A DNA stretch of 64,000 nucleotides from Deltaproteobacteria bacterium. Lineage in GTDB: Bacteria; UBA10199; JACPAL01; JACOUP01. This document shows positions 6,484-33,571 of this stretch, in pieces (positions within the stretch are counted from its first letter, which is position 1; each line of letters begins with the position of its first letter). The DNA is taken from NCBI GenBank assembly GCA_016177765.1, contig JACOUP010000003.1:1-64000 (forward strand), read 5' to 3'. Position numbers and translations under genes: made by a program. A model generated the notes under the pieces. The model had not been told where the DNA came from. It did not search any database and was given only the letters and a program-made list of their open reading frames with translations.

Positions 6484-6545
6484 TTCCTAAACCCCTGATT
6501 CTCTAGCAACTTTCCCTATTCTCACCCGATAAAACAGGTAAGCCT

Positions 6546-9500
6546 ATGTCTTGCGATCCGATCAGCCAATCTTGCCCGCGTCGCCCCGGAGAAACCGACC
6601 CCTCTGATGAACCAAACGCCTCTTTTCCGGACAGGCCGGATACGGGAAAAAAGGCCGATTCCAGAATGAGTTTGAGTTCTGGCGGGGGCAGTTTTGAATT
6701 GCTCCCGAGAGCTGACCTGGCCCTGTTACAATTGCGATCGGGAGGTCATCCACAGGCCGGTGTTGTCAGGAGACCCACTTCGGAATCGGGCGGGAGCAGT
6801 TCTGGGGAACACCCGGTTCGCAATCTAAAGATTGATCCTTCCAAGCCGACCGTTGTCTTGCTCGATTTTAACGGGGTTCTCGATACCACGCGTCGCGCGG
6901 TTGATCTCTTGTCTCTCATGCAGGCGGACCCGAATGTTTCCGGGATTTACCTCTTTGGGGTTTATCCGGATGAATTGGTGGATCCAGAAGAGCTGGATGG
7001 ACGCTGGCCGACACGAGCGGCTGAGGTGCGTGAGGCACAAGCGAGTGCAAGAGCGGTAGGAAGACCGACCTATCAGAGTTTGAGAGGACTTTATCCCAAG
7101 TTAGCCGGTGATTTGAGTGTTGCCAAATTTATTCCCAATGGCGGGGAACAAGAACGTGAATTCAGGGCACACGGTGTTGATCCGAGCAGATTTAACGTTA
7201 TTGTCCTGGATGATATGGAGGATGACGTCCGGTTTGATCTTGATGATCCGGCTATTTCGGATGAATTTAGAGCTGCGGTTCAAGTTGTGACGCCACGGCA
7301 GGTCGGGAAGGCCCATGAAATCCCCCCTGTCGAATCCTCCGTGTTTGAAGATTGGGACGAACTCTCCCGCAAACTGGCCGCCAGCTATGAAGGTCACACA
7401 GCACCTTCCGCACCGCCAGTGACGCCTCCACCCGATCCTCCACCAGCCGGATCCGGGGGAGGGGGTGGTGACGAACTTTTGCCAAAACTCCTTCTGGTAC
7501 GCAACAATCCGGTAGCGCTTCGACAGCTTGTCCTTGCCGATCTGAGAATTCTGGACACCCCCGTGGTTGACGAATTCGTGCGTCTCACACGGGAGGATCC
7601 CGATTTTCATTCGGACACCGCTTTTGCCGTTATCGGGGGGATGCGGTTTGAAGAGAATTTCAGAAGCGGGGGGCAGATTGTCCTTTCCACCTATTTTTCA
7701 CGACTAGGCCTTGAAAGTACGGTCACCAACCTTTCTATGGTGGATCCTACTGAGGCGGCAACTTTTATGGACCCTGTCTGGAATCGCTGTCAGGATATTA
7801 TGTCCCGTGGTTCCAATCCGGACATGCGGTACTATGTCCTGGCCCTGACCCACGAGATCGTCCGTAAAGATCTCTTGAGACAACAATCCTTGGGAGACGA
7901 CCCGGTCCTGAGGATTGTGGCTCTCGGCATGAAAGACCCGGACCCGACTAACTCCTATCTGGCGTGGAAGATCCTCAAAATGTTGGATCCTGCGGCGGCC
8001 CGTGTTGTCGGCAGGGATTCCTTTACCGAAGGGGTCTCGACCGCCTCTGGGGAAAGTCCTGAATTTGGGATTTCCCCCTATGTTATCGACAATGACCATC
8101 AAAATCTTATGCGGTCCAATTTATTCATTCAGTTGCTTTCCGGTAGTGTCCCAGAGACAACGGTTGTTTCCATTGACGAGGTTGTTCCGATCCATTCCCT
8201 GGCCGATTACAATCCGGACCCTCGTCATCGAAAGGGGATTGTCGATGAGAAGTATGCGGCCTTGCGCAGAATTGTTGTGGAAGAGGGTGAGGGAGCTGAT
8301 CGTGAAAGGGTGATCGGTCGCTTTTTTGCCCTGCCGGATGTTGCGGGGCATGAACAATCGGTTAAGGTGTTGAGACTCCCCTCCGGCCGGCAGTTTGTCA
8401 TCGACGGCCAACACAGGATGGCTACGCTGATTCGTGCCGCGCGAGAAGGGTTGATCCCCTCCGACTGGCTCGACGCAGTCGGTCCGGTAGAACGGACCAC
8501 CTATCAAGGGGATATCCCTGAGGCGGTCATTGAACACACGCTTACCTTGGGGGTTGATCTCTCGTGGAAGGATCTTTTTCCGGAGTCAGAGGGTTCCCCT
8601 GCCAATCGGTTGACTCTTTCTTCCGGCGCCCGATATTCTTTCCAGCTGGATGATGGAAGAGACCTTCGTTTTCTTCCCCCCGATACGGAAGATAAAGGGC
8701 TCGCCGAATACCGTGGGCAAGAAGTGGGGCGAATTGTTGCCGCCTTTCGGGATAATACGGCCAATCTGGTGACGCTCACCGGTTACCCCGGTACGCGGAA
8801 GACGCGTACTTCTGTGACCGAGCTCGAGTCTGCCCTGGACGCGGCCGGATTTTCAAGTTTGCATTGGGAATTTAAGAATCTGGTTCGTCTTGTTGACCAT
8901 GAGGGGGTGCAGGCACAACATTGGTTGGTCCCTCCCCACGTGGTTGTTCTGGATGAGGCGGCAATCCCGAAAGAACAGTGGGGGCGAACAGGACCAGTAG
9001 CCAAGGTTATCGGACGGTATCTCGCGGCGGGGGGCCGTATCATTTTGATGGGGGCTGGTGGGAATACGACGCCCGAAACACAAGTCGAAGAGATGGGGTG
9101 GGTCCAGCAGGCAAAGGGGGTTCGGTTACTCAACGTCCCTTTTGATGTGAAGCCGCTCAATTCCCATCAGGCCCGGGACCTCCTGACCGAGGGTACTCTT
9201 CTCTCCGGTGCCGACAAGGAGGCCTATACCGATCTTGTCCTTCGGTATCTCCCGCCGTACCTGCGCCCCGTGAAACATTTTAGTTTGAGACCGCCCGATT
9301 TTAACAGGGCAACACCGATTCATAGTTTTTCGGAGGCGAGGGATTACTTTTATGGATTGATGAGAGATCCAAAAAACCGTTCCGGCTGGGCCCGTTCAGG
9401 GATCACCGTCACCACTCTTCCCGAAGATATCCCGGCGGCGGAGGCAATGGTGGCCCTTCGTGAGGGGGAGCGGCCACTCCTTGTCGGCAATCGCCTTATT

Positions 9501-12500
9501 GCAGAAAACTTTCAGACCTGGGGTGATTTCCGAAGACTGGTGGCAACGGCCAAGGAGGCCGGTGTTGAAAACGATCTTGTCGGTCGGGTTCTCGGGCAGA
9601 TTGAAATGGATCCATCAATGGCCGTTGTTGAAGGGGGCTCTCCACAGACGCCGCAACAGGTCCTTCATGCCTTGGCACATGCCGATAATCCGTCTGCCAG
9701 GGCCCAGGCTTATGGCAACGTTCATGGGCTTGTTGTTGCTGTCATGACCAGCCTTGCCGATGTTCCCAACCTTGGTGACAGTTTCACTACCCCGAAAGAT
9801 TTGGCCGACGGTATAGACGCTCCCTTGCCGGGAACGCTTGTTGTTGCTGAGCTTTTTGCCGGTGAGCCGGAAGCGGTCAAGTCGGCCTACAGGGCCCGGA
9901 CAACCACGAGACGACTTTGGGAAGAAGTTGAATCCTCCGTGGGGGCCCCCCTCCGAAGACTTTTTGAAGAGACGGAACAGGCGAGTGTTGACCTCCGGGA
10001 TGTTGATGGAGCGATGCTGGTCCGGGCCTTTACAGTGGTTCAGGGAAAAAACCGTGCACTGGCGGCGGCCAATCCCCCCCCGCCGCCGGAGGAATCGGCC
10101 GATGTCGTCGCGACACGGGCCCTTTTCCGGGATCTCCCGGTGGAGACGGGGGTTCGTTATCCGATCTTGTCCGCGACGGAACGGGAAGATCTGACGGCCC
10201 ACTTAGCCCAGTTGGATCGTCCCTTTCGGTCCGGTTCCAGCGAACACCACACCTCTTTTGGGCGTCATTGGAAGTCGTTTTTGGCGGCGGCGGCACAGTG
10301 GGGCCCGGAATCCCGGACCGGCAGGGTTCGGGCGCTGGTTGTTGGGGCCGGTCTTGATTTTCCGATTAACGAAGCGGTTCCCTTCATGAGTCATGTTGCC
10401 GGTTACCGTCCCTTGTTGCAGGAAAGGAAGGAGGCGATCAACGTCCTGGAACTGGCGGCGCTGATGGCGAACCATGGTTTAGACTACGCGATCGATGTCG
10501 TCGATCCGAACGGGGAGGTTGAGGCCTACTTCCGGGCCCTCGCGGCGGTCGAATCCCACCGCTTTCTGGTGGCGGATCATGCCGGCGTCTCGCGTGACTA
10601 TATTCAGACGGTTTTTGGTCCCCAGGCTCGTGATGTCACCGCCGAGCATCTGGGTAGACTCCCTCAGGGCGCAACAGTCGTCTACGAAGTGAGACTGCCG
10701 CGGGAGGTTTTGGATAGAATTCATTTCCACCGTCGGTCGGTGCTTGAGCCGTTACCCGGTACCGGGTACGATCTTGTCGACTTTAGTCTGGTCAAGCCGC
10801 ACCTGCGGCGTGAAATTCAGGCAGGGGAGGGGGGCCAAGTTCTGGGGGCGACCCTTTTGGACACGGCTGAAAGGAATCTTGTCTTGAATCTGAATCAGGG
10901 TGGAACCGTCGTGACGGATGCCTTTGAAGAAAAGAAGGCCGGCTCTCACGGTTTTTCCGTCCTGAGAGACTATGGGTCGGACGAGAGGGTTCTCCGCCTG
11001 ACGCACCCTCGTCAGAAGGTTTCCTGTCTGGTTCGCGATCGGTCGGGTCCTTTTCAGGCGGCAATCGTTTCCCCCCATCCCTCCCGTTCTTCCCCGGTCC
11101 CCGGGCCTCTCCTTCTTGGAAGCGATCCTGTTCCCTGGGCCCTTTCGGCGCTCGATGCGGCGCCAACAGAGGAGGCACGGGCCTTTCTCTATAGCCGTCT
11201 CGCCTTTGAGCTATTGACGGTCCAGTCCCGTTTGGACCATTTTTTTCTGGGGGGATTGGATCGGTTTCCTGAGACAGAGATCCTGGATGATCTGGAGAAA
11301 AGTTTGCCGATTGTCCGGGCGGTCGCTGAACGGTACGCGCGTGAACCGGCATCCCTGAAAAATCGAGTTACTTGGGAGGAGCCTGATTTTGAAAGAAGGA
11401 TCCAGCTTGTCTGGGACCCTGCCTATCTGGAGATGGCGCTTTTTCTCCCGATCGCCGTCCTCCTCGATCGTCCCATCTCGGACCCGCGCGATCTCGAGGG
11501 GCTGGATCGGGCGACATGGGTAAGGGTAATCCGGGAGGTCCGGGAGGCCCGTCGCCAGACCCACGAGGCATTGATGAGAGAAGGGTTTACGGTGGCACTC
11601 AATGGGCATTTTCAACTTCGCGCCGGGAGTCTGGAACGTTGGTCCGATCTCGGCCGGTTGGTGACCCTCGCCCGGGAACATGGGGCGGATCCCCTTTCGC
11701 GCCTACTCGCCCAGATTGATATCCCCAGACCTCCCTCTGTGGAGGGGACAGCCGGTCACCCGTGGCAGTTTATCTGGCGGCTCCAGCATGGTGGTGAGGT
11801 GAGATCTCTTTTTGCCAACCGCCTCGATGTTTACGATGATGTCCAGTCACACCCCGCCACCGTCAGACAACTTATCCAGGTGATTCAGAGAAGGGGTTCG
11901 TTGGATAACGAAGATATCGAAAGTATGGCCCCGATTATTGCGGATGGCGTGGAAAGGGGACTGGCGTTGGCGGTCATTTATGCGGCGGAGTCTCCCGCCT
12001 TTAGACAGGCCTATGTCGCGCATCGCGAGGGTGAACCAGTTTTTTTTGAAAGAGAGACATTGGAACGATATGTCTTGGCCCCTTTGCGAGAACTGTTGGG
12101 TTACGAAGAGGGTTCCGATCTTTCTGGCCTCACCGCAGAGGAGGTGGCGACAGGGCTCCGGCGTTATGCTGGACTGAGTTCGCTCCCCCCTGTTGTTGAT
12201 CGGAGGCCTGAAGAGAGGGATGCCGAAGTGGCCCGTCGTCTGAACCATTACCTTGATCAATGGAACAGAGGTCCAAGACGTGCGATGACTGTAAGGGCGT
12301 TGAAGGCCGCCCTCAGAGGGTCGCCGGCAGGTCTAGAAATTAAGATCAGGGCGATTGATGTTGACGAGGCCTGGGAGACTGTTGTCCTCCCAATCCTGGA
12401 GCAAAGGGCCCCGACCCTCTTGGGGGAACGAGCCCCCCGCTCTATGAAGCAAGAGGCGGTAAGAGTCGGCACAGAAGTGGTTGTTGCCCGTTGGCTCGAC

Positions 12501-13598
12501 GGTTTTCATCAACCGGTCCCCTCCGGAACCCTTTTTCAAGAGATTGATGTGGCCGTGATAGACCGGTTTGGGGGTCTCGTTTCTTCCAGGACAGAAAGAG
12601 AAGTGGTTGTTGCGGTCGTTCGCGAGCGGGCCCCTTCGATGGTCTTGGAAAAAGCCTTTACCGAAGGACCTCTTGATCCTTTGATCGTCCCTCCTTTGTG
12701 GGGCGAGAAGGATCGGACAGAACTGCATGATCTCCTCGCCTGGACCCTTCCGGACGATGAAAGGTCGGACCTGATGACCGCCTTGACGGAGGAGTTGTAC
12801 AATCCCTATTTCTTGAGGGCGGTCCGTGGTTTCTCGCGGGAACTTGTTGCCGGGACAGCGACAGAAAGGGAGAGGGCAATCCTCAGGGATAATCTCCGGC
12901 TCGCTTTTTGTTTTGCCAATCCGGAATGGGCGGTTGCCGATCTCTTTGACCGTCTCGCGCGTGGAGAAACACTGGAGCCGGTTCAGGAAATGACCCTTAA
13001 TGGACGAACGGTTCTTCGTTACCCGGCTGGATTGGAGGATTTGGAGGCCCTGGAACCGGTGGAAGAAATTCCTGAAGGACACAGGGATGATCCGAACCGC
13101 CAAAGATTGGTTTTTGACAAAAGATGGCGTCAAGGATGGCGTCGCCGGAGCCGGGTTCTGGCAGGGGAAAGTCTGCGTAAGCGTTATCCTGTTACTGATC
13201 TGGCCTCTTCGGTTAGCCTGTCGCCGGCCGATCCTGCCTTGATGATGGTGCTGGCCGAGCGGATGGGACCGGAGTACCGGGATGCGTTTGAGAGACGGCT
13301 CGTGTCACAAGCGCTTGGGACGGATCAATCTGTTGTTGGTGTCGATCTCGCCCCTCTCCCGCCATTGTTGGCCGGGGTTGATCCTTTAGCCATGGCGGCT
13401 CGTGAACTTTCCGCATTACTGGTGGATCGTTCGGCCATCCCCGGCGCCTCTTTTTCTCAAGACGTAGTTGTCGAACGGTTAACAGTGGGTGTTCGCCAGA
13501 TGACCTCTGTTGGTGAGGGTCGGCTCCTTCCGACGGAGGCTGTCAGGCGTGATGGTGAAAGAGGGAGAGATCTCCTTCGAGAAGTAAAAATCCGGTAG
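6546..13598 (+). CDS. Giant multidomain protein: HAD-like, DGQHR/ParB-like, P-loop ATPase, CheR-like methyltransferase
   Basis: A 2350-residue soluble protein with no signal peptide or membrane segment. Visible pieces in order: a Cys/Ser/Pro-rich N-terminus (MSCDPISQSCPRR); a HAD-like domain (VVLLDFNGVLD about 102, VIVLDDMEDD about 217); a Pro/Gly linker (about 285-312); a DGQHR/ParB-like motif (FVIDGQHRMATLIRA, about 617); a P-loop ATPase (GYPGTRKT about 745, where Arg replaces the usual third Gly; Walker B-like HVVVLDEAAI about 798); a class-I methyltransferase resembling CheR (ALVVGAGLDF about 1260, YDLVDFSLV about 1407); and two related segments (about 975-1150 and 1678-1860). The ATPase part and the last 100 residues resemble the next gene. 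Start ATG 6546 has AGGT 8 nt upstream. I cannot assign a function; domain calls are motif-level inference. Confidence 0.8.
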   Translation: MSCDPISQSCPRRPGETDPSDEPNASFPDRPDTGKKADSRMSLSSGGGSFELLPRADLALLQLRSGGHPQAGVVRRPTSESGGSSSGEHPVRNLKIDPSKPTVVLLDFNGVLDTTRRAVDLLSLMQADPNVSGIYLFGVYPDELVDPEELDGRWPTRAAEVREAQASARAVGRPTYQSLRGLYPKLAGDLSVAKFIPNGGEQEREFRAHGVDPSRFNVIVLDDMEDDVRFDLDDPAISDEFRAAVQVVTPRQVGKAHEIPPVESSVFEDWDELSRKLAASYEGHTAPSAPPVTPPPDPPPAGSGGGGGDELLPKLLLVRNNPVALRQLVLADLRILDTPVVDEFVRLTREDPDFHSDTAFAVIGGMRFEENFRSGGQIVLSTYFSRLGLESTVTNLSMVDPTEAATFMDPVWNRCQDIMSRGSNPDMRYYVLALTHEIVRKDLLRQQSLGDDPVLRIVALGMKDPDPTNSYLAWKILKMLDPAAARVVGRDSFTEGVSTASGESPEFGISPYVIDNDHQNLMRSNLFIQLLSGSVPETTVVSIDEVVPIHSLADYNPDPRHRKGIVDEKYAALRRIVVEEGEGADRERVIGRFFALPDVAGHEQSVKVLRLPSGRQFVIDGQHRMATLIRAAREGLIPSDWLDAVGPVERTTYQGDIPEAVIEHTLTLGVDLSWKDLFPESEGSPANRLTLSSGARYSFQLDDGRDLRFLPPDTEDKGLAEYRGQEVGRIVAAFRDNTANLVTLTGYPGTRKTRTSVTELESALDAAGFSSLHWEFKNLVRLVDHEGVQAQHWLVPPHVVVLDEAAIPKEQWGRTGPVAKVIGRYLAAGGRIILMGAGGNTTPETQVEEMGWVQQAKGVRLLNVPFDVKPLNSHQARDLLTEGTLLSGADKEAYTDLVLRYLPPYLRPVKHFSLRPPDFNRATPIHSFSEARDYFYGLMRDPKNRSGWARSGITVTTLPEDIPAAEAMVALREGERPLLVGNRLIAENFQTWGDFRRLVATAKEAGVENDLVGRVLGQIEMDPSMAVVEGGSPQTPQQVLHALAHADNPSARAQAYGNVHGLVVAVMTSLADVPNLGDSFTTPKDLADGIDAPLPGTLVVAELFAGEPEAVKSAYRARTTTRRLWEEVESSVGAPLRRLFEETEQASVDLRDVDGAMLVRAFTVVQGKNRALAAANPPPPPEESADVVATRALFRDLPVETGVRYPILSATEREDLTAHLAQLDRPFRSGSSEHHTSFGRHWKSFLAAAAQWGPESRTGRVRALVVGAGLDFPINEAVPFMSHVAGYRPLLQERKEAINVLELAALMANHGLDYAIDVVDPNGEVEAYFRALAAVESHRFLVADHAGVSRDYIQTVFGPQARDVTAEHLGRLPQGATVVYEVRLPREVLDRIHFHRRSVLEPLPGTGYDLVDFSLVKPHLRREIQAGEGGQVLGATLLDTAERNLVLNLNQGGTVVTDAFEEKKAGSHGFSVLRDYGSDERVLRLTHPRQKVSCLVRDRSGPFQAAIVSPHPSRSSPVPGPLLLGSDPVPWALSALDAAPTEEARAFLYSRLAFELLTVQSRLDHFFLGGLDRFPETEILDDLEKSLPIVRAVAERYAREPASLKNRVTWEEPDFERRIQLVWDPAYLEMALFLPIAVLLDRPISDPRDLEGLDRATWVRVIREVREARRQTHEALMREGFTVALNGHFQLRAGSLERWSDLGRLVTLAREHGADPLSRLLAQIDIPRPPSVEGTAGHPWQFIWRLQHGGEVRSLFANRLDVYDDVQSHPATVRQLIQVIQRRGSLDNEDIESMAPIIADGVERGLALAVIYAAESPAFRQAYVAHREGEPVFFERETLERYVLAPLRELLGYEEGSDLSGLTAEEVATGLRRYAGLSSLPPVVDRRPEERDAEVARRLNHYLDQWNRGPRRAMTVRALKAALRGSPAGLEIKIRAIDVDEAWETVVLPILEQRAPTLLGERAPRSMKQEAVRVGTEVVVARWLDGFHQPVPSGTLFQEIDVAVIDRFGGLVSSRTEREVVVAVVRERAPSMVLEKAFTEGPLDPLIVPPLWGEKDRTELHDLLAWTLPDDERSDLMTALTEELYNPYFLRAVRGFSRELVAGTATERERAILRDNLRLAFCFANPEWAVADLFDRLARGETLEPVQEMTLNGRTVLRYPAGLEDLEALEPVEEIPEGHRDDPNRQRLVFDKRWRQGWRRRSRVLAGESLRKRYPVTDLASSVSLSPADPALMMVLAERMGPEYRDAFERRLVSQALGTDQSVVGVDLAPLPPLLAGVDPLAMAARELSALLVDRSAIPGASFSQDVVVERLTVGVRQMTSVGEGRLLPTEAVRRDGERGRDLLREVKIR

Positions 13599-13606
13599 AA
13601 AGAGCA

Positions 13607-14935
13607 ATGTCCCAATGCAATCCAGTTAATTCCTGTTGTCCCAGAGTGGCCTTGCCTCCCAGCAGTTCCGACGATTCTTCTGCATCACCAGCTTCATCGG
13701 CTCCCGATTCATTCTCATCCGAACCGGCCCCTGATGCCCAACTTGTCAAGGTGATGGGTGGGGGAGGAAGCGGTGGTCCTGAAAATCCGAATCGTCTCTT
13801 CCGACTCGTCTCCGGTTTGGAGTACCGGTTCGTTTCTCAGGATGGAGGGGAGCTGGAGTCAATCCCTGCCGACCCGGAACCGGTCTCTTTGGACGATCAC
13901 CGTCAGGGTGAAAGAGAAGAAATTTTGCGTCTCCTGGATCAGGGTTCTTCGATTGTTGCCGCCCTCGGTTTTCCGGGGGTGGGGAAGACGGTTGTGGCGC
14001 GGTACCAGATTGCCCCGCGTTTGAAAGGACAGGGTCAGGCGATAGGCCTTATTGATCTTGATGAGTTGAGTGCAGAAGGTACGATTCCGGATCATTTCTC
14101 TGTTCCGCGGCACCGGGGAGTTCTGATTATCGACGAGGCGGTGATTGACCCGAAGGATTGGGAGGATTACGGCGATTTTGCCTCCGGCCTCAGGACATTT
14201 GTGGAGGATGGGGGAAAGATCATCCTGATGGGGGCGAACGGTTACTGGTCCCCGGCAAGACAACAGGAATGGCTCGGCTGGGTCGAAAGGGATGTCGGGA
14301 TCCGGCCGGCCTTCGTGACCTTCAAAATCAAACCATTGAATACCGGGCAGGCGGCCGAATGGCTGGTTCTACCTCATTCGCCGATGACCCCTTCCGATCG
14401 GCGTCGCTATGCGGAACTGGTTCTGCGGTGGGTCCCCCCGCATCGGCGTCTTTTGACCGATTTTATCCTTCCGATCAAGATTGCCTCTTATGAAGAAGCG
14501 TCCCGGTTTTTTCAAAAAACCTATACGGGAATGGATTTCAGGGAGTTTTTGGCGGAAAACGGGATTCATGCCGATTCGGTTCCTCCGTTTAACGAGCCGT
14601 CTGGCAACCCCTCCAGTCCGCCTCCTGTGGAGGGGACCTCCTCGGTACCGGGTACACCCTCAACTCCCTCAATAGCAACGCCTTTTGCCGATCCGTCGGT
14701 GGTGTTACCCCTCGCAGTGATGATGGGGCGGCCGGAGTATGAGGTCGCGGCCCGAGAGCTCTCCGTCTTGCTCACTGATCAAGGGGCAGGAGATCCTTTT
14801 TCTGTGGCGGTGGTGATCGACCGGTTGACTGCAGGGGCGGGCCGGCTTTCTTCTCCCAGGTTTGGCGAGAGACGACTGGTCGAGATCGACCGGGCCCCTG
14901 AAAGGGCAGAGACCCTTCGCCTCCTGGCCCCTTAA
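13607..14935 (+). CDS. P-loop ATPase, paralogue of the giant protein's ATPase module
   Basis: A 442-residue protein that begins 9 nt after the giant gene's stop, so the two are probably co-transcribed. Walker A is canonical (GFPGVGKT, about residue 120) and Walker B is GVLIIDEAV (about 170), followed by GGKIILMGANG, which matches GGRIILMGAGG in the giant. Similarity covers the region from SGLEYRF before the P-loop to KIKPLN after it, and a C-terminal segment (AARELSVLLTDQ; the giant has AARELSALLVDR). The N-terminus MSQCNPVNSCCPR resembles the giant's first residues, so they may share a targeting or binding tag. It looks like a compact version with the HAD, ParB-like and methyltransferase parts absent. 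Function unknown. Confidence 0.85.
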   Translation: MSQCNPVNSCCPRVALPPSSSDDSSASPASSAPDSFSSEPAPDAQLVKVMGGGGSGGPENPNRLFRLVSGLEYRFVSQDGGELESIPADPEPVSLDDHRQGEREEILRLLDQGSSIVAALGFPGVGKTVVARYQIAPRLKGQGQAIGLIDLDELSAEGTIPDHFSVPRHRGVLIIDEAVIDPKDWEDYGDFASGLRTFVEDGGKIILMGANGYWSPARQQEWLGWVERDVGIRPAFVTFKIKPLNTGQAAEWLVLPHSPMTPSDRRRYAELVLRWVPPHRRLLTDFILPIKIASYEEASRFFQKTYTGMDFREFLAENGIHADSVPPFNEPSGNPSSPPPVEGTSSVPGTPSTPSIATPFADPSVVLPLAVMMGRPEYEVAARELSVLLTDQGAGDPFSVAVVIDRLTAGAGRLSSPRFGERRLVEIDRAPERAETLRLLAP

Positions 14936-15548: not shown

Positions 15549-18500
15549 ATGGGGGACCCCAGAGATCCAAAAATTGGTTTGGGAGGCAGACCGACTCCCT
15601 TCGTTCCTGCCGATTTCACACCCGATGTCGGTCAAGACGGGCCTGCCTCGCCTGAGGCGACGCAAGACGGGCCGGTTTGTTCTGATGGGGCGGAAGAGGC
15701 CACTGTTGCGACCACTTTTGGGCGCTCTCATTTTACACGGGAACCTCCACTCGCTCCGGTTATAGGACTCGTTACCCCCCGTTTTTCAGGAACCGTTCCG
15801 AGACAGGTGACAGCGATTGCCAATCCCTCCGGTGAAGCAGAATCACTCAACCGACGTCTTGCTGCGTCCCGCGAGGTGATGCTTCGTTTCCAGCTGGACA
15901 GTTTCCGCGGCGCCTTTAGCCCGGAAAATATCCGTCTGGTGGCGAACCTCCTTGTCCAGACCCGCTATTTTGACCAGGAGTCTACCACCGATCAAGCGAT
16001 GGCGGTCCATACTGAGGTGGAGAAGGGAGGGGCCGTCGGTTTTGCCCGGTTTATTGACGAAATCCTGGAAGACAACCGGGTGATCCACCGGATCGCCGCC
16101 GACAAGGATACCCGACTGTTTCTTTCCCTGGTTCCTTGGACCCCGTCAAACGGACTGATCCTCGCCTCTCCGTTCAACAGTTCCCCAGTTCCGGAAAAGG
16201 CCCAGGAGGGAGTCTTTGATTCCGTTGTTGGGAGATTCACCGCCGGACCGGGAGAGATAGAAACAGAAACGGATGGCAAGGTTCGGGAGAGGGTTCGTCG
16301 ATGGTTTGAATATAACCGGTTCCGTTTTGGGAGCGGGCTTGCGGTTTGGCTCCTCCGTCACCTCCCCGACTACTATGGAGCTCGCTACTTTGTCAGCGAC
16401 CCGGAGCTGGAGGAGAAACTCCTCCCGGCCCGGCGATTTCAGATGCTGGCGGTCAGCCTGGAGCTGATGGCCGGAGAGATCTATGCCACCAAATTTCCGG
16501 AGGCGGAAAGGGTGGCCCCCGTTGTCGGGATTGAAGCCCATCCTGCCTTCAAACCGGCCGACCCTTCCTTGGTAACCGTTACCGATGAAATAGATCCTGA
16601 AGAAGCCGGCATTGTGGATGGTTCCATTGATCCGGGGGATCAGGAAAGGGTCCATTTTGCCCGTGTCCTGATGCTCCGGGCGCATCTGATGGATATCCGT
16701 GATAACCCGACGCCGGGAAATATCGTGCTGGTGGCTGAACTGGTCGGGGCCCAGCGGCTGGTCGAAATGACCGGTGCGGGGGCGGTTTACCGGCCTCAAT
16801 TCATTTTTGAAAAATCAATAGAGGTGGAGGTGAGGCAGGCGGCGGAGAAGGGAAAATTTGGGGAGATTGTTGACGCCCTGGCGAAAGATCCGGCATTTCT
16901 GGCGGTGGCGGCGCAATCGGGGGATTATGCCCGTTTCGTGCCGTGGGCGCCGAGACGTCCCTTGGAACTGCTTGACTCTCCGTTCGGAATCCCACCGATT
17001 GATGATGCCGACGAGATTGATGAGATGCTCCGGAGTGTGAAACACGACCTGGTCGAAAGAACCGGGATGAGGGAATCGGTTGTCCAGGAGTGGCTCGACC
17101 GGTGGATTGCGGAAACGACTGCCAAGATCGGTATCAATGCCATGCTGGACGTGGTGATCAATCTGCCGGATGTTTATGCCTACCGGCAGGGGGATATCAC
17201 CCTTGCCGAAGAGGTACATGAGGCGGAAGGTGTGCTGAATTACCCTCCGGTCCTCCGGGTTCTGGATCAGGCGGTTTCTGATCTGAGGCAGATGAAGGAG
17301 CGGGGGCGTCTGGTTGGGGATCGTCACCGTGCCTTTTGGAAGAAACCAGTAGCACCGGTGGCTGTTTCCAAAGGGGTCGTCGGTTCAGTCTCGCGCGGTG
17401 TGAAAACCTATTATGCCGATCATCCTCCTTGGACCGAGGAAGTTCTCGGACGTCTGAAAGAGGCTCGGGAGGCGATGGTCCGCGCCCAGCTCTCTATTAA
17501 CGGTTCACCGGTTGATGAAGCGTTGGTGGCTCAAACCGCGGCCGATCAGAAAATGTTTACGACCCTCGTCCCTTGGGCCGAATCCGATAACATTATTCTG
17601 AATTCCCCTTTCGGTGTCGCTGTGGAAGCAGATATCGAAGCGGAAAGGTACAACGCCGCTTTGGAATCTTTGGCGGAGCCGGAAGGGGAAGTCTCCGTGT
17701 CGGTGCGCAACTGGTTTTCTGGCTGGTACCACGACGCCCGGGTCCGTTTGGGTCCCGGCGCCGCTCTGGCGGTGGCCGAGGTGGTCAGAGAGACCTACCG
17801 GGCCGCATTGGATCCTGAGACAGATCCATTCTGGATTGAATCCCTGAAAGAAGGGCTTGTTTATGCCGTCCTTTCCAGCGAGCTGAACAGGGCCGTCCGT
17901 CAGTATGCCCAAGCTGTGATGGGGGTAGGAGATGAGAAAGTTTCAGTTGTTGTCCCTCTTTCGCCGGGAAGGGCGAGAGAAATTCGTTCTCCCCTGGTTC
18001 GATCAGGGGTCAGTGCCGACCCACGAACCGGGTCATTGGGGCCTTCGCGCCGGGAGATAACCCCTCCACCGGATGACGGGGGCGATTTTACACCGGTCGC
18101 GCGCGGGGCTCTTCCAGCCTTGGCAGTTCCCTCTCAATGGCGTCCCGGTGGTTTGCATCGGTCAATGCCCCGCCTGGAGAGGGAAAGTTCTGGACCGAGA
18201 CCGGGGGTTGGCCGCAGTATCAGTCATCCGGCACGACGACCGGCCGGCCTTGCCGGCAACCGTCGGCGGCTTCCCCGTGCGGGAGGAATTTCCGGAGGCG
18301 GGGGGGACAGGCCGTCCTCACCGGGGGTTGTTGCGAGAGAGATCCTCCTGGTGATCCGTTCCACCCCGGAACCGACCGGTTCCATGCCGGGCGACAGGCA
18401 GGAAACCGTGAGACGCTCCTTTGATTCTTTCGACCGGGCCATCGCGACCAACCTGGGGACACCGTTGGACCGGACGGTGAGACAAGAAGCGGCCAGACTG

Positions 18501-20153
18501 ATTCTTAACAAGGTTGTTCGTATCGTCCGTCCTTACGTTTTGAGCCAAAGAGGTGTTATTGAAAACCTGGGTCGTTTGGTAGCGATCGAGATTGGGATCC
18601 TGGGGGGTCAAGACCTTGCGACTTTGGCCCATTGTGGCGTCTTGAGAAAGATTTCAGCGTCGGAGATACTGCGCTTGAGGGAGCAATACGGTTCCATTAT
18701 CCTGAACATTGCGATTCGGGAACCGGATCCCCATCAAATCAAGAAGAGGGCGGCGGAACTCAAAGGGGCCCGCGAAGCGGCAGAGGCCTACGTCAGGAGT
18801 ATTGAAGGGGGGCGGTACGGTTTTATTGCCAGGTCAATCGCCAGCGGCGCCTTCGGCTCGCCGGATCCTGTTACCCGTGCCGAACAACTCCTGAAAAATT
18901 ACCAGGCGGTCTTGACCTTTGTTCGTCGTCGCGGCGCCCAGTTTGTAGGATTCGAGGAAACCATGGCCCAGTCGTCTTTTATTGCTGAAGACGAAGAGGC
19001 AGCGGTGGCCAAGGCGGGGCGTTCACTCAACCGTTATCAGTATGCCGAGCGGTTTGTAGAAAGGTACCGTGGCGGTTCATATGCCCACCTCAAGGGGACA
19101 CTGGCCGGTCTTTGCATCATGGTTGCTGGCGAGAAAAAGGCAACGGCCAGACTGCAATGGAAGGAAGACAAGAGACGGATCCGTCAGGTGATCAAGGCGT
19201 ATCTGGAGGCGTATGACTCTGCTTTAAGGTTTGCCACGAACTATCGTTCCCGGCGTTATGAACATATCGCCCCGACGGCGGCAAAGGAGGCGATGACTGC
19301 GGGATCGGTCAAAAATCCGGCCGGTCTTAAAGAGGCGGCGGTCAGAAGGACTCATGCCTTCTTGAGGGGGTATGATCGGGTCTTGACCTTTGCCAAGAGG
19401 TATAAGGGGGGGCGGGATAGGCAAACGGCGCAGTCGGTGGCCGACAAGTCTTTTTCTTTCAGGGATCCGATTGGGGCGGCGCGGAAGATGTTGGATAATT
19501 ATGATGCCGTTTATCGGTGGGCCTGGGAGAATGGCTGGCAGACTTACGCCGGCACGATTGCGGGAAACTGCCTGACCGAACGGAATGAGGGGGCGGCAAT
19601 CACCAAGGCAGGACGGATCGCCTCCACTTTTGACAAGGGAGATTGGCCTGGTCCTGATGGCCCTCCCAATCGCCGGCGTCGGGGAGGGAGGGGCCGAAGA
19701 GCGGACCATGGTTTTGTTGGCGGGGGCCGGGGTTTGGGTCAGGATCGGAGGAGAGGGGAGGGGCCGCAGGCCTTGGGTGGTTCTTCCGGGGTTGTTTCTT
19801 ACCCCACATTTGGCGCCGTTTGTCTTGAACCAACCCCTTCGATCAGCACTGCCGAATTGGCTTTTCCTGATGAGCCGATTGCCGGGGTTATCGATCTTCT
19901 TCCCCCTGAAGATCGCGTCATTGTGGAGCAGGCTTCTGATCCTCGGGCGGCGGTGACCCGCTTTTTGGAGGAGAGGGGGATTCCGTTCGAGACGATCGGA
20001 CTTGAGGGGGCAAGAGTTTTACTTCTGGAACAGGTTCGTGGCGAACCGTTTCACCCCGGCCTTGGCTTGGAACGAGGGGCCCGCGAACTCCGCGGCGAAA
20101 CCACCCGGGGCGCCGAGCTGGGGCGTGTTCTGCAGTTCCCCCTCATTCCTTAG
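15549..20153 (+). CDS. 1534-residue repeat protein of unknown function
   Basis: A long soluble protein with no signal peptide. The N-terminal half holds three diverged copies of a roughly 200-280-residue unit, each with an (L/F)VPWxP/E...L.SPF signature (about residues 193, 462 and 673) preceded by a helical AR/SR.vM.R.qL segment. A low-complexity linker follows (about 835-935; GC-rich, Arg/Gly/Pro). The C-terminal half (about 1078-1335) has six copies of a roughly 50-60-residue helical unit of the form .F...Y.GG.Y..IA.t.A. A second Gly/Arg linker leads to a small terminal domain. I recognise no enzyme motif. The start (ATG 15549) has only a weak AGAGAA upstream. The unusual linkers could hide a frameshift, but the frame stays open on both sides. 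Confidence 0.72.
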   Translation: MGDPRDPKIGLGGRPTPFVPADFTPDVGQDGPASPEATQDGPVCSDGAEEATVATTFGRSHFTREPPLAPVIGLVTPRFSGTVPRQVTAIANPSGEAESLNRRLAASREVMLRFQLDSFRGAFSPENIRLVANLLVQTRYFDQESTTDQAMAVHTEVEKGGAVGFARFIDEILEDNRVIHRIAADKDTRLFLSLVPWTPSNGLILASPFNSSPVPEKAQEGVFDSVVGRFTAGPGEIETETDGKVRERVRRWFEYNRFRFGSGLAVWLLRHLPDYYGARYFVSDPELEEKLLPARRFQMLAVSLELMAGEIYATKFPEAERVAPVVGIEAHPAFKPADPSLVTVTDEIDPEEAGIVDGSIDPGDQERVHFARVLMLRAHLMDIRDNPTPGNIVLVAELVGAQRLVEMTGAGAVYRPQFIFEKSIEVEVRQAAEKGKFGEIVDALAKDPAFLAVAAQSGDYARFVPWAPRRPLELLDSPFGIPPIDDADEIDEMLRSVKHDLVERTGMRESVVQEWLDRWIAETTAKIGINAMLDVVINLPDVYAYRQGDITLAEEVHEAEGVLNYPPVLRVLDQAVSDLRQMKERGRLVGDRHRAFWKKPVAPVAVSKGVVGSVSRGVKTYYADHPPWTEEVLGRLKEAREAMVRAQLSINGSPVDEALVAQTAADQKMFTTLVPWAESDNIILNSPFGVAVEADIEAERYNAALESLAEPEGEVSVSVRNWFSGWYHDARVRLGPGAALAVAEVVRETYRAALDPETDPFWIESLKEGLVYAVLSSELNRAVRQYAQAVMGVGDEKVSVVVPLSPGRAREIRSPLVRSGVSADPRTGSLGPSRREITPPPDDGGDFTPVARGALPALAVPSQWRPGGLHRSMPRLERESSGPRPGVGRSISHPARRPAGLAGNRRRLPRAGGISGGGGDRPSSPGVVAREILLVIRSTPEPTGSMPGDRQETVRRSFDSFDRAIATNLGTPLDRTVRQEAARLILNKVVRIVRPYVLSQRGVIENLGRLVAIEIGILGGQDLATLAHCGVLRKISASEILRLREQYGSIILNIAIREPDPHQIKKRAAELKGAREAAEAYVRSIEGGRYGFIARSIASGAFGSPDPVTRAEQLLKNYQAVLTFVRRRGAQFVGFEETMAQSSFIAEDEEAAVAKAGRSLNRYQYAERFVERYRGGSYAHLKGTLAGLCIMVAGEKKATARLQWKEDKRRIRQVIKAYLEAYDSALRFATNYRSRRYEHIAPTAAKEAMTAGSVKNPAGLKEAAVRRTHAFLRGYDRVLTFAKRYKGGRDRQTAQSVADKSFSFRDPIGAARKMLDNYDAVYRWAWENGWQTYAGTIAGNCLTERNEGAAITKAGRIASTFDKGDWPGPDGPPNRRRRGGRGRRADHGFVGGGRGLGQDRRRGEGPQALGGSSGVVSYPTFGAVCLEPTPSISTAELAFPDEPIAGVIDLLPPEDRVIVEQASDPRAAVTRFLEERGIPFETIGLEGARVLLLEQVRGEPFHPGLGLERGARELRGETTRGAELGRVLQFPLIP

Positions 20154-26890: not shown

Positions 26891-26926
26891 TTCATGGTTC
26901 GACTTGGCTCACCATGTTCGAGTCTG

Positions 26927-27832
26927 ATGTCACTTATCGTCCTTTGTGGCCCGACCGCCACCGGCAAAACCAAACTGGCGCTTGAACTGGCAGAACGTCT
27001 GGGCGCCGAGATCATCAGCGCCGATTCCGGGCAGGTTTATCGGGGACTGGATATCGGCACCGCCAAACCGACCCCGGAAGAGAGAAAAAAGATCCCGCAT
27101 CATCTGATTGATCTGATCGAACCGCCTGAATCCTTTTCCGCACCCCTCTTTGCTAAAAAGGCAGATGCGGCTCTTCAGGAGATCTCTTCCCGCGGAAAGA
27201 GATCTCTTCTCGTTGGGGGTACCGGTCTTTACATCCGGGTCTTTCTCGAAGGGATTTTTGAGGGACCGGCACGAAATGAAGAATACCGGAAAAAACTGGA
27301 GCTTTTGAAAAAGGAGAAAGGGAATGGTTTTCTCCATCAGGAATTAAAACGAGTGGATCCCAAGGCGGCCGAGAAAATTCATCCGAATGACCCGCAACGG
27401 ATCGTCCGGGCGCTGGAGGTTTTTCACCTGACGGGGAAGCCGATTTCAGAGTGGTGGGAGGCGAGTAGGGGCGCTACTCGCCGCGCCCCTACACTAAAAA
27501 TCGGCCTGACGTTAGAGAGAGAAGAGTTGTACCGCCGGATCAACGAACGGGTTCTGAAGATGATCAATGCCGGTTGGATCGGGGAGGTGGAGGGGATTAT
27601 CCAAAAATGGGGGAGTAATATTCCACCCCTCAAACTGGTTGGGTATCGGGAGATTGCCGAATATCTGAAAGGGAAAAGGGGAAAGGAGGAAACGATTTCC
27701 CGGATCCAACAGAAAACCAGGAATTATGCCAAACGCCAGTTGACCTGGTTCCGGGCGGACAAAGAAATTCGCTGGATGAATCTCTCTGAAATAACGGAGG
27801 GTTTTATCCGCAACAGTTTCTTGACAAGATGA
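26927..27832 (+). CDS. miaA: tRNA dimethylallyltransferase MiaA
   Basis: About 301 residues. It transfers dimethylallyl from DMAPP to A37 of tRNAs reading UNN codons. Visible motifs are the P-loop GPTATGKT, DSGQVYRGLDIGTAKP (most MiaA have DSMQVYR), GGTGLYI, and the C-terminal KTRNYAKRQLTWFR. ATG 26927 gives the standard start MSLIVLCGPTATGKT. The longer reading from 26894 runs through a dispersed repeat (ATGGTTCGACTTGGCTCACC) also seen at 32690 and 33523. A palindromic insert (27465-27491, GTAGGGGCG/CGCGCCCCTAC) encodes SRGATRRAP in frame. Confidence 0.95.
   Translation: MSLIVLCGPTATGKTKLALELAERLGAEIISADSGQVYRGLDIGTAKPTPEERKKIPHHLIDLIEPPESFSAPLFAKKADAALQEISSRGKRSLLVGGTGLYIRVFLEGIFEGPARNEEYRKKLELLKKEKGNGFLHQELKRVDPKAAEKIHPNDPQRIVRALEVFHLTGKPISEWWEASRGATRRAPTLKIGLTLEREELYRRINERVLKMINAGWIGEVEGIIQKWGSNIPPLKLVGYREIAEYLKGKRGKEETISRIQQKTRNYAKRQLTWFRADKEIRWMNLSEITEGFIRNSFLTR
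27465..27491 (+). repeat. Palindromic insert inside miaA
   Basis: GTAGGGGCG and CGCGCCCCTAC form an inverted repeat within the coding frame and add a basic loop (about eight residues) to MiaA. It resembles the dispersed GTAGGGGCG palindromes seen in many bacterial genomes. Confidence 0.5.
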
Positions 27833-27875
27833 GCAACTTGGTTAATATTCGGCGACCCAATTTTTGGAAAATTCT

Positions 27876-28424
27876 ATGCCCGCAGAGAGCACCATCCCGG
27901 AGAGTCAGACACTGGCCAAGGTCAAGCCGGAGGATCGGGCCAATCTTTGGACGCGCCGCGAGTTTTTTGGTTTTGCCGGCTGGGGGGCGTTCCTTTCCGC
28001 CATCGGTATCGGACTCCTTTCCTTTTTAAGGATGCTCTACCCCAGGGTTCTTTTTGAGCCGGACCCCACCTTTAAGGCGGGAAAAATCGAGGATTTTGTT
28101 GTGGGGGAGGTAAGCGAGAAGTATAAGGAGGAGCAACGGGTCTGGATCGTCCGGGAAGAAGAAAAGATCTACGCCATTCAGGCGATCTGCACCCACCTTG
28201 GTTGCACCCCGCGATGGCTTCCGTTGGAAAACAAATTCAAATGTCCCTGTCATGGGAGTGGCTTTGATAAAGGGGGGGTCAATTTTGAAGGGCCGGCGCC
28301 GCGCCCTCTGGAAAGACTGAAAGTGACTCTGGACGAAGAACAGAATCTGGTGGTGGACAAGAGCCAGAAATTCCTTTGGGAAAAGGGGGAGTGGGAAGAC
28401 CCCGATTCCTTTGTAAAGGTTTAA
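27876..28424 (+). CDS. Rieske iron-sulfur protein of a bc-type complex
   Basis: About 182 residues. The 2Fe-2S ligands are in CTHLGC and CPCHGSGF. The N-terminal [26 protein letters not shown] is a Tat-like twin arginine followed by the single membrane anchor. It would accept electrons from quinol and pass them to cytochrome c at the periplasmic face. ATG 27876 is preceded by GGAA at 6 nt; a TTG at 27864 is the longer alternative. It opens an operon of Rieske, cytochrome b, subunit IV and multihaem c with gaps of only 1-3 bp. Confidence 0.95.
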
Positions 28425-28425
28425 T

Positions 28426-29238
28426 ATGACACTTAAAGAAAAACTCCTTCATCAGTACGAACAGGTCAGGCTGGTGGTGATCAACTCCACCGTTTGGAAG
28501 TCTGTCTTCCGTCACGGTTATAAGGATACTCCTCGCAATCGGGTTCTGATGACCGCCTCCAACGTCTTTTTACACCTCCATCCCTCCAAGGTCCGGCGGC
28601 ACGGGATCAAAATCTCCTATACCTGGTGTGCTGGCGGGCTCACTTTTCTGATATTTTTGGTGACGGTCGTGACCGGTGTCATCCTGATGTTCTACTACCG
28701 GCCGGTGGCCGAATATGCCTACATCGATATGAAGTATCTGGAATTTGACATCCCATTCGGGATGGTCATGCGGAATATGCACCGGTGGGCGGCCCATGCG
28801 ATGGTGATCCTGGTGATGCTCCATATGTTCCGCGTCTTTCTAACCGGTTCCTACAAGCCGCCGCGCGAGTTTAACTGGGTCGTTGGTGTGGTCCTGCTCG
28901 TCCTGACCTTTCTTCTCTCCTTCACCGGGTATTTGCTCCCGTGGGACCAGCTCTCGGTTTGGGCGGTCACCGTCGGGACCAACATGGCCAGGGCGACGCC
29001 GCTCCTTGGCCACGAAGGACCGATGGCCGAACAGGTTCGGGCCCTGACAGGCGACCTGGTAGCGACGCCCCGCTACGATGCCCGTTCCCTGTTAACGGCT
29101 GGCACAGTTGTGGGGGCCCCGACCCTTTTGCGGTTTTATGTCTTGCACTGCATTTTCATCCCGATTGCGGCCGCCGTCCTGATGATTGTTCATTTTTGGA
29201 GGGTGCGAAAAGATGGTGGCATTTCAGGGCCCCTATAA
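28426..29238 (+). CDS. Cytochrome b, N-terminal part (b6-like)
   Basis: 270 residues with four membrane helices. The bis-His haem ligands are in [18 protein letters not shown] (helix B) and in [10 protein letters not shown]...VHFWRVR (helix D). The order and spacing match cytochrome b6 or the N-terminal half of cytochrome b. It forms the core of the quinol:cytochrome c reductase in the inner membrane with the downstream subunit IV. It starts 1 bp after the Rieske stop. Confidence 0.94.
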
Positions 29239-29241
29239 ATT

Positions 29242-30045
29242 ATGGCCGATTTAAGGAAAAAAGAAGGAAAAATTGTCCCTGCCTCGTCGCTCACCTCGGA
29301 CAAGATCCATTGTTGGCCTTTCCTTGTTCGTGTCGAGTTTATTGTCGGCTTGGCCACCCTGATCTTTCTGACAGCCTGGTCACTCCTCCTGGATGCCCCG
29401 CTGGAGGAACCGGCCAATACCTCACGGACCCCCAACCCTTCCAAGGCCCCCTGGTATTTTCTGGGTCTGCAGGAGATGTTGGTCTATTTTGATCCCTGGA
29501 TCGCCGGTGTGGTTTTGCCAAGCCTCATCATTGTCGGTCTCATGGTGATCCCTTACGTCGATATCAATCCAAAGGGGAACGGCTACTACACTATTCGAGA
29601 ACGCCCCTTTGCCGTCGGGATGTACGCCTTCGGGTTTCTCATCCTCTGGATCTTTCTGATCTTTGTCGGTGTTTTCTTGCGTGGGCCCGGCTGGAACTTT
29701 TTCATGCCTTGGGAACATTGGGACCCTCATAAAGTCGTGGCACTCACCAACATTGATCTGAACATCTGGGTGGCCCAGACCTTCGGCCTCGATTTCCTGA
29801 GGGGTCCCGTTTGGGGGATGCTCCTCGGCCTGGGCCTGATTGGTGGCTACTATTCAACGGCGGCGCTTGTTTATAAATTAAAAGCGAAGACAAACAAGGT
29901 GATTGGCGAGCTGGGGCCAGTTCGTTACGGGATTGTCGCCTTCCTCTTTTTAACAATGATGGCGTTGCCGATCAAGATGGTTCTCCGCTGGACCCTGAAC
30001 ATCAAATATGTCTGTGTCATCCCCTGGTTAGGAATTAACATCTGA
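29242..30045 (+). CDS. Cytochrome b, C-terminal part (subunit IV-like)
   Basis: 267 residues with several membrane helices. The quinol-site motif normally reading PEWY appears as APWY in NPSKAPWYFLGLQEML (about residue 75). The protein is longer than plant-type subunit IV and adds helices after NIDLNIW. Together with the preceding gene it makes a split cytochrome b, typical of b6f-like and many deltaproteobacterial or actinobacterial bc complexes. The Glu-to-Ala change removes a residue used for proton exit in mitochondrial-type complexes. Confidence 0.9.
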   Translation: MADLRKKEGKIVPASSLTSDKIHCWPFLVRVEFIVGLATLIFLTAWSLLLDAPLEEPANTSRTPNPSKAPWYFLGLQEMLVYFDPWIAGVVLPSLIIVGLMVIPYVDINPKGNGYYTIRERPFAVGMYAFGFLILWIFLIFVGVFLRGPGWNFFMPWEHWDPHKVVALTNIDLNIWVAQTFGLDFLRGPVWGMLLGLGLIGGYYSTAALVYKLKAKTNKVIGELGPVRYGIVAFLFLTMMALPIKMVLRWTLNIKYVCVIPWLGINI

Positions 30046-30047
30046 TT

Positions 30048-33433: not shown

Positions 33434-33571
33434 CTGGAAAAATAAAGGTTGAAAAATAGAAAGTTTTTGTTGATAAAAGTGCCCATCCTTCGACTGAGCT
33501 TAAGGATGTCCATTGTTGCGTTCATGGGCATGGTGAGCTTGTCGAACCATGACACAAAAAAAGGAGGCAGT

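What the first reader, a model, noticed from the sequence alone, without database searches (positions are those of the whole stretch)
6546..13598. 2350-residue protein joining HAD, DGQHR/ParB-like, P-loop ATPase and CheR-like methyltransferase parts
I know of no family with this order of domains. The protein is cytoplasmic by sequence and has a Cys-rich N-terminal tag. The combination of nucleotide handling (HAD, ATPase), a DGQHR motif as seen in ParB-like and DNA-modification proteins, and a methyltransferase could mean a defence, conflict or effector system. Large size and domain mosaicism resemble polymorphic effectors.
Basis: partly seen in the sequence, partly recalled or inferred. Interest (0 to 1): 0.72.

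Follow-up and report, generated by a model that had tools for sequence, protein, structure and literature searches.

The report
Tagged giant protein, likely secretion-linked effector
A 2,350-residue patchwork protein from an uncultured deltaproteobacterium-like microbe belongs to a family with a shared cysteine tag; it has the same switch-on signal as many other large orphan proteins, and the switch factor is probably encoded inside a needle-type secretion gene cluster, so it is a good candidate for a protein delivered into other cells.

Summary
The ORF (6546-13598, 2350 aa) is real and has no Pfam, NCBIfam, PHROG, PADLOC or PDB-sequence relative. The CheR-like methyltransferase is supported by a predicted fold (PDB top hit CheR, E 4e-7). 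The DGQHR part looks ParB/sulfiredoxin-like (weak fold match) and follows a HEAT-like helical part. The P-loop ATPase is real, but its Walker A is degenerate here. HAD rests on motifs only.

New findings: (i) P0001, the next gene and a third protein in this genome share an N-terminal tag C-[DN]-P-x2-3-[SC]-C, seen otherwise only in the sister-family genome, which carries at least seven tagged proteins in which the same modules are shuffled. (ii) A sigma28/FliA-type promoter, CAACT[TC]T-N12-CCGA[TC]AA, lies just upstream of P0001 (6507-6532) and of its relatives across the phylum (25 sites versus 2 in the reversed control). (iii) No flagellin was found; a FliA/WhiG-family sigma factor is encoded inside a non-flagellar type III secretion cluster.

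Best reading: P0001 is a late-regulon, polymorphic candidate type III substrate acting on another cell. Regulation and tag are well supported; secretion is inferred. A defence role has no support.

The parts
6507..6532 (+). sigma28/FliA-type promoter CAACTTT-N12-CCGATAA, 13 nt before the start codon (predicted near-leaderless mRNA)
   Evidence: 0 mismatches; 25 genome sites vs 2 for the reversed control
6546..13598 (+). P0001, 2350-aa modular giant protein
   Evidence: no family match
6546..6578 (+). N-terminal Cys tag MSCDPISQSCP
   Evidence: shared by relatives at N-termini only
6813..7415 (+). HAD-motif segment (DFNGVLD, K194, LDD); fold not confirmed, motif I is DxN
   Evidence: 39% identity to G032 protein P0013; searches give no support
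7641..8020 (+). HEAT-like alpha-helical repeats
   Evidence: predicted structure; weak CRM1/importin/TOG matches
8021..8560 (+). ParB/sulfiredoxin-like domain with DGQHR motif (8403-8417)
   Evidence: ParB, Noc, SbnI, PadC at E 0.1-0.3
8595..9479 (+). P-loop ATPase module; Walker A GYPGTRKT (8781-8804, degenerate), Walker B VVVLDEA (8940-8960)
10092..11105 (+). CheR-like SAM methyltransferase module; VVGAG (10338-10352) and IDVVDPNG (10491-10514)
11103..13325 (+). C-terminal region, parts homologous to a separate tagged gene of sister genome G001 (L031:1-2169); fold unknown
13392..13529 (+). C-terminal tail shared with P0002 (48-column alignment, 50% identity, E 5e-4)
13607..14935 (+). P0002, 442 aa: Cys tag (MSQCNPVNSCC) + intact P-loop module + shared tail, likely co-transcribed with P0001 (8 nt gap)
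15549..20153 (+). P0003, 1534-aa orphan; its homolog L027:5771-8524 also sits next to a P-loop/HEAT/DGHHR gene in G001 (conserved neighbourhood)

Best explanation
P0001 is a modular 'late' protein of a sigma28-type regulon and most likely a substrate (effector) of the genome's non-flagellar type III secretion system, acting in or on a prey or host cell. Shown: intact ORF; N-terminal Cys tag shared by family members; modules (HEAT + ParB/Srx-like, P-loop, CheR-like methyltransferase, large C-terminal region) recombined among tagged paralogs; a sigma28/FliA-type promoter in front of P0001, P0004, P0005, the operon-heading tagged genes of G001 and module relatives elsewhere in the phylum; many other regulon members are large orphan proteins without signal peptides, some sharing an N-terminal domain with divergent C-termini; no flagellin; a FliA/WhiG-family sigma factor encoded within a type III secretion cluster. 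Inferred: that this sigma factor reads these promoters; that the T3SS exports the proteins; that the tag or adjacent low-complexity region takes part in sorting or anchoring; that the methyltransferase modifies target-cell proteins, with the P-loop and ParB/Srx-like parts as nucleotide-binding (possibly regulatory) units.
For: Tag: 46 genomes of the phylum searched, full matches only in G000 and G001, reversed-pattern control 0 everywhere; among 242 held ORFs of 250 aa or more of this genome only P0001, P0002 and P0004 carry it near the start. Promoter: 25 sites vs 2 control in G000 and 29 vs 3 in G001; within 2 mismatches upstream of 11/14 family genes vs 6/233 control genes (Fisher 1e-12); in the 7 relatives not used to derive it, 4/7 vs 6/233 (P 5e-5); exact in G033. 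It matches the sigma28 -10 element, and the Bdellovibrio attack-phase FliA consensus is TTAAG-N16-CCGATA (PMC3627812). Sigma factor: FliA_WhiG is its best family, 147.6 bits, below the curated cut-off 189.6. T3SS: SctR and SctN equivalogs above cut-off, plus FHIPEP, YscJ, FliH/SctL, FliM/FliN-type and Bac_export_1 proteins; no flagellin. Regulon: SNase-like and transglutaminase-like proteins and an N-terminal domain shared by four tandem proteins with different C-termini. CheR fold. Module shuffling.
Against: No secretion, expression or binding data. The regulon also holds proteins with signal peptides or lipoprotein-like starts (porin-like, multihaem cytochrome, lipoprotein) and a PilZ protein, so promoter membership alone does not mean export. 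No site with one mismatch or fewer lies in front of the T3SS structural genes. The sigma factor-promoter link is by family resemblance. 2350 aa is very large for a type III substrate. The T3SS cluster proteins scanned include no secretin, so the exit path is unclear. Walker A and HAD motif I are degenerate.
Confidence: 0.5

Rival explanations
1. P0001 is a cytoplasmic signalling or scaffold protein of a sigma28-controlled life-cycle phase (as in Bdellovibrio attack phase), not secreted; CheR-like methylation and nucleotide switching act on the cell's own proteins.
For: FliA in Bdellovibrio has become a global attack-phase regulator of many genes beyond flagella (PMC3627812); the regulon here includes a PilZ (c-di-GMP) protein; relatives carry HATPase_c domains (P0012, P0013), which are typical of signalling.
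Against: Gene-to-gene module shuffling with shared terminal tags is unusual for core signalling; the modules are orphan and lineage-restricted; the sigma factor sits in a T3SS locus.
Confidence: 0.33
2. P0001 is part of an anti-phage or inter-genomic conflict system.
For: P-loop, ParB/Srx-like and methyltransferase modules are all seen in defence proteins (general knowledge); large orphan multidomain protein.
Against: No PADLOC match; no defence genes next to it; promoter shared with a large dispersed regulon; persistence of module and promoter across families of the phylum.
Confidence: 0.05
3. The proteins are exported by another route (Tad-like pilus or another secretion system) or sit on the outer surface, with the Cys tag as an anchoring or lipidation site.
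For: The tag starts at residue 3-6 with no hydrophobic segment, so it is not a classical lipobox and needs another explanation; in the Myxococcus needleless T3SS* delivery is linked to a Tad-like pilus (PMC12075869).
Against: Genes for other systems were not searched for; the sigma28-T3SS link points to type III.
Confidence: 0.1

Closest known systems
Bdellovibrio bacteriovorus FliA attack-phase regulon (PMC3627812)
   Same: sigma28-type promoter with CCGATA -10 element; a global regulon that reaches well beyond flagella
   Different: -35 here is CAACTTT with different spacing instead of TTAAG-N16; no flagellin; the sigma gene lies in a non-flagellar T3SS locus
Myxococcus xanthus needleless T3SS* (PMC12075869)
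   Same: T3SS basal-body-like cluster, here with no secretin found among the proteins scanned, in a deltaproteobacterial-type organism; effectors not known
   Different: Prey killing and lysis shown in Myxococcus only; absence of needle, secretin and translocon was not tested exhaustively here; a FliA-family sigma factor is embedded in this cluster
Chlamydia trachomatis sigma28/sigma54 late control (PMC10597470, PMC7482065)
   Same: sigma28 retained without a flagellum alongside a T3SS; late expression
   Different: Chlamydial sigma28 regulon is two genes (hctB, tsp); here about 20 or more sites including giant orphan proteins
Polymorphic toxins / effectors
   Same: Common N-terminal part with variable further modules, many paralogs
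   Different: No known trafficking domain, no immunity genes identified, no toxin domain proven
CheR chemotaxis methyltransferase
   Same: Predicted fold; VVGAG and acidic D-V-x-D motifs; PLP...YD region
   Different: 12-16% identity, no chemotaxis genes seen adjacent, embedded in giant proteins

Membership tests
CheR-type methyltransferase | CheR-like SAM methyltransferase fold with SAM motif I | tested here: met
   (1bc5_A, E 4.4e-7); invariant G-A-G and D-V-x-D
CheR-type methyltransferase | Sequence match to CheR family profiles or link to chemotaxis genes | tested here: not met
   no Pfam/NCBIfam hit for P0001; profile hit to CheR 5ftw only at E=1; no chemotaxis genes seen adjacent
ParB/sulfiredoxin-like (DGQHR) proteins | ParB/Srx fold | tested here: inconclusive
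   ParB, Noc, SbnI and PadC lead the list, but E 0.1-0.3
HAD phosphatases | HAD Rossmannoid fold with DxD motif I | tested here: inconclusive
   motifs I (as DxN), III (K) and IV (DD) present; no profile support; fold not predicted
P-loop NTPases | Walker A GxxxxGK[ST] and Walker B hhhhDE | tested here: inconclusive
   Walker B intact; Walker A degenerate in P0001 (GYPGTRKT), intact in P0002, P0005, P0006 and P0014
Type III secretion effectors | Genome encodes a T3SS | tested here: met
Type III secretion effectors | Co-regulation with the T3SS or its dedicated regulator | tested here: inconclusive
   shared sigma28-type promoter; sigma gene in the T3SS locus; binding not shown
Type III secretion effectors | T3SS-dependent export directed by the N-terminus | not testable with these tools
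   needs experiment
Polymorphic toxins | Common N-terminus with variable further domains in paralogs | tested here: met
   tag family; L179 family
Polymorphic toxins | Downstream immunity genes | not tested
   no systematic search for immunity genes was made
Anti-phage defence systems | PADLOC profile match or defence neighbourhood | tested here: not met
   neighbours

The most novel reading that the evidence does not exclude
An uncultured, deltaproteobacterial-type phylum carries a T3SS whose dedicated sigma28-type factor drives a regulon of giant, tag-bearing, module-swapping effectors, with P0001 the largest member seen here. This would be the first candidate effector repertoire for a secretin-less ('needleless') deltaproteobacterial T3SS, and a flagellum-style late-gene hierarchy rewired to effectors.
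Probability: 0.35. Interest if true: 0.82.

Novelty: new variant of a known kind. Interest (0 to 1): 0.62.

Why it matters
Effectors of the deltaproteobacterial non-flagellar T3SS, such as the Myxococcus needleless T3SS*, are not known. A promoter signature that picks out giant orphan proteins genome by genome gives a direct, testable list of candidate substrates, and a new example of a flagellar-type sigma factor apparently serving a secretion system with no flagellin in the genome. It also gives a regulatory context to proteins that otherwise look like annotation noise: very large, signal-less and without any recognised domain.

Tried and rejected
Defence-system reading: PADLOC negative. Phage origin: PHROGs negative. 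Single conserved architecture: rejected, because the modules are permuted in G001. HAD fold: not supported beyond motifs. Weak P-loop hits in G004 and G015 turned out to be 2-oxoglutarate dehydrogenase-like proteins. The other tag-pattern hits in C2 and C8 are not at gene starts and are taken as chance. A first promoter pattern with the wrong gap (11 bases after CAACTNTAG) gave more control than real hits; with the correct spacing it separates cleanly. Cysteine depletion of regulon proteins was tested and is not significant (P 0.07). Multi-segment alignments A6, A7 and A8 misplaced fragments, so only two single modules were folded. The genome-collection scan found the HEAT-DGHHR module only in this phylum's genomes (one peptide pattern, so not exhaustive).

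Full report
OBSERVATION. The ORF at 6546-13598 is a single open frame of 2350 codons. No Pfam, NCBIfam, PHROG, PADLOC or PDB-sequence match exists for the whole protein. Its highest 19-residue mean hydropathy is 1.56 and the first 50 residues are hydrophilic, so neither a membrane segment nor a Sec signal is evident. The genome is 1.92 Mb in 19 contigs and belongs to a phylum with 46 held genomes. GenBank titles of relatives read 'Deltaproteobacteria bacterium' and 'Bdellovibrio sp.'. I could not fix the phylum name; UBA10199 is only a guess from memory.

MODULES. Relatives in the same genome and phylum let the protein be cut into modules. (a) Residues 90-290 have HAD-type motifs DFNGVLD, a conserved Lys and LDD, shared at 39% identity with a G032 protein that continues into a histidine-kinase-type ATPase; neither profile nor Pfam search supports HAD, and motif I has Asn for the second Asp. 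(b) Residues 366-700 are a HEAT-like helical part plus a DG(Q/H)H(R/T) domain found in several families of the phylum; an AlphaFold2 model (pTM 0.75) matches ParB, Noc, SbnI and PadC at probability 0.57-0.96 but only E 0.1-0.3. (c) Residues 684-978 are a P-loop module with intact Walker motifs in several paralogs, three of which give weak AAA_16 hits, and a broken Walker A in P0001. (d) Residues 1183-1520 model as a SAM methyltransferase (pTM 0.80) whose best PDB matches are CheR proteins (E 4.4e-7); this module has nine matches in G001 and was found in no other genome of the phylum. (e) Residues 1520-2260 are partly homologous to a stand-alone tagged gene in G001; fold unknown.

SHUFFLED, TAGGED FAMILY. 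In the sister-family genome G001 the same modules occur in other orders and combinations: P-loop then HEAT-DGHHR (L027:8625-11057, untagged), P-loop then CheR (L030:2470-4794), CheR alone (several), region 1664-2230 alone (L031:1-2169). Many of these proteins, like P0001, P0002 and P0004, start with a Cys tag, consensus C-[DN]-P-x(2,3)-[SC]-C, in G001 mostly MAC[DN]PVxQSCP. A DNA pattern for it was searched in all 46 genomes: full matches occur only in G000 and G001, at start codons, and the reversed control pattern gave none. In G001 the family also shares a C-terminal motif GGxxSYRG...DGELL. P0001 and P0002 share a C-terminal tail (50% over a 48-column alignment).

PROMOTER. Comparing upstream DNA of tagged genes revealed a conserved block immediately before the start codon. 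Written as CAACT[TC]T-N12-CCGA[TC]AA with at most one mismatch it occurs 25 times in G000 and 29 times in G001, against 2 and 3 for the reversed control. In the window it is exact at 6507-6532, 13 nt before the P0001 start. It precedes P0004 and P0005 (1 mismatch each; for P0005 the site points to an internal Met as the true start) and all operon-heading tagged genes of G001. It also stands before module relatives elsewhere in the phylum: exact in G033, one mismatch in G025 and (farther upstream) G009, two in G018, G032 and G002. At two mismatches or fewer, 11/14 family genes versus 6/233 control genes have it (Fisher 1e-12); restricted to seven relatives not used to define it, 4/7 versus 6/233 (P 5e-5). 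The -10 half is the sigma28 element; the FliA consensus of Bdellovibrio attack-phase promoters is TTAAG-N16-CCGATA (PMC3627812).

REGULON. Other sites lie roughly 8-45 nt before genes for many large, signal-less orphan proteins (803, 879, 1075, 1085, 728 aa and others), including a staphylococcal-nuclease-like and a transglutaminase-like protein, and a tandem group of four proteins with a common N-terminal domain of about 170 residues and different C-termini. The regulon is not exclusively of this kind: a porin-like protein, a multihaem cytochrome, thrombospondin-repeat and lipoprotein-like proteins and a PilZ protein are also downstream of sites.

SIGMA FACTOR AND T3SS. No flagellin was found in G000 or G001. 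The best FliA_WhiG-family protein (147.6 bits, below the curated 189.6) lies at C8:1216095-1216940 within a cluster encoding SctV (FHIPEP 780 bits), SctJ, SctL, SctN, a FliM/FliN-type C-ring pair, SctR, SctT, a FliK/HpaP-like protein, an FHA-YscD-like protein and an FHA-sigma54 activator. SctR and SctN exceed their NCBIfam equivalog cut-offs (the ATPase also exceeds one FliI model). No secretin was seen among the cluster proteins scanned. This resembles the secretin-, needle- and translocon-lacking T3SS* of Myxococcus xanthus, which is needed for prey lysis (PMC12075869). Chlamydia gives a precedent for sigma28 kept without a flagellum next to a T3SS (PMC10597470).

MECHANISM. The most economical model: the T3SS is assembled first; the FliA-family factor then switches on late genes, among them P0001-P0002; the proteins, recognised through their N-termini, are exported to a prey or host cell, where the CheR-like domain modifies proteins and other modules bind nucleotides. 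Steps shown: the gene family, tag, promoter motif, sigma gene and T3SS. Steps inferred: sigma-promoter pairing, export, target. Confidence in 'T3SS substrate' is about 0.5; confidence in 'member of a sigma28-type regulon with tag and shuffled modules' is about 0.9.

NOVELTY. The tag, the modules and their link to a sigma28-type promoter were not found in the databases or papers searched. As a kind of system it is a new variant of polymorphic, co-regulated effectors rather than something categorically new.

Noticed in passing
G000 C8:1198001-1236000 (L193, L194): Non-flagellar type III secretion cluster with embedded FliA/WhiG-family sigma factor and an FHA-sigma54 activator; a possible sigma54-like site (TGGCATAGATCCTGCA) lies 71 nt before the sigma28-like gene.
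   Followed up: partly
L179:9616-15812 (G000 C8:1052615-1058811): Four tandem genes sharing a roughly 170-aa N-terminal domain (49-72% identity) with different C-termini, headed by the sigma28-type promoter: a second polymorphic family.
   Followed up: partly
window 15549-20153: 1534-aa orphan P0003; a G001 homolog also lies beside a P-loop/DGHHR gene and shows internal repeats of the shared domain; both have a divergent promoter-like site (3 mismatches).
   Followed up: partly
L170:772-2142 and L175:4815-5774: Signal-less SNase-like and transglutaminase-like proteins under the same promoter: further effector candidates.
   Followed up: no
G000 C1:5501, C2:132113, C10:3397 and G001 C118:4530: Nearly identical sequence CAACATTGACAAATGG..ACCGATAA repeated in several places of both genomes; may be a repeat element or a special promoter subset.
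   Followed up: no
L045:8610-14690: Another 2026-aa orphan giant (MGTFNSPWPVCHTDSLRQISVCEAP...) with no Pfam domain beyond weak TPR.
   Followed up: no
L035:1932-4061 and L037:8139-10649: Relatives of P0001 modules fused to histidine-kinase-type HATPase_c domains in other phylum members.
   Followed up: partly
window 30048-32690: 880-aa protein with several cytochrome c domains, in a run of same-strand genes (26894-34261).
   Followed up: no
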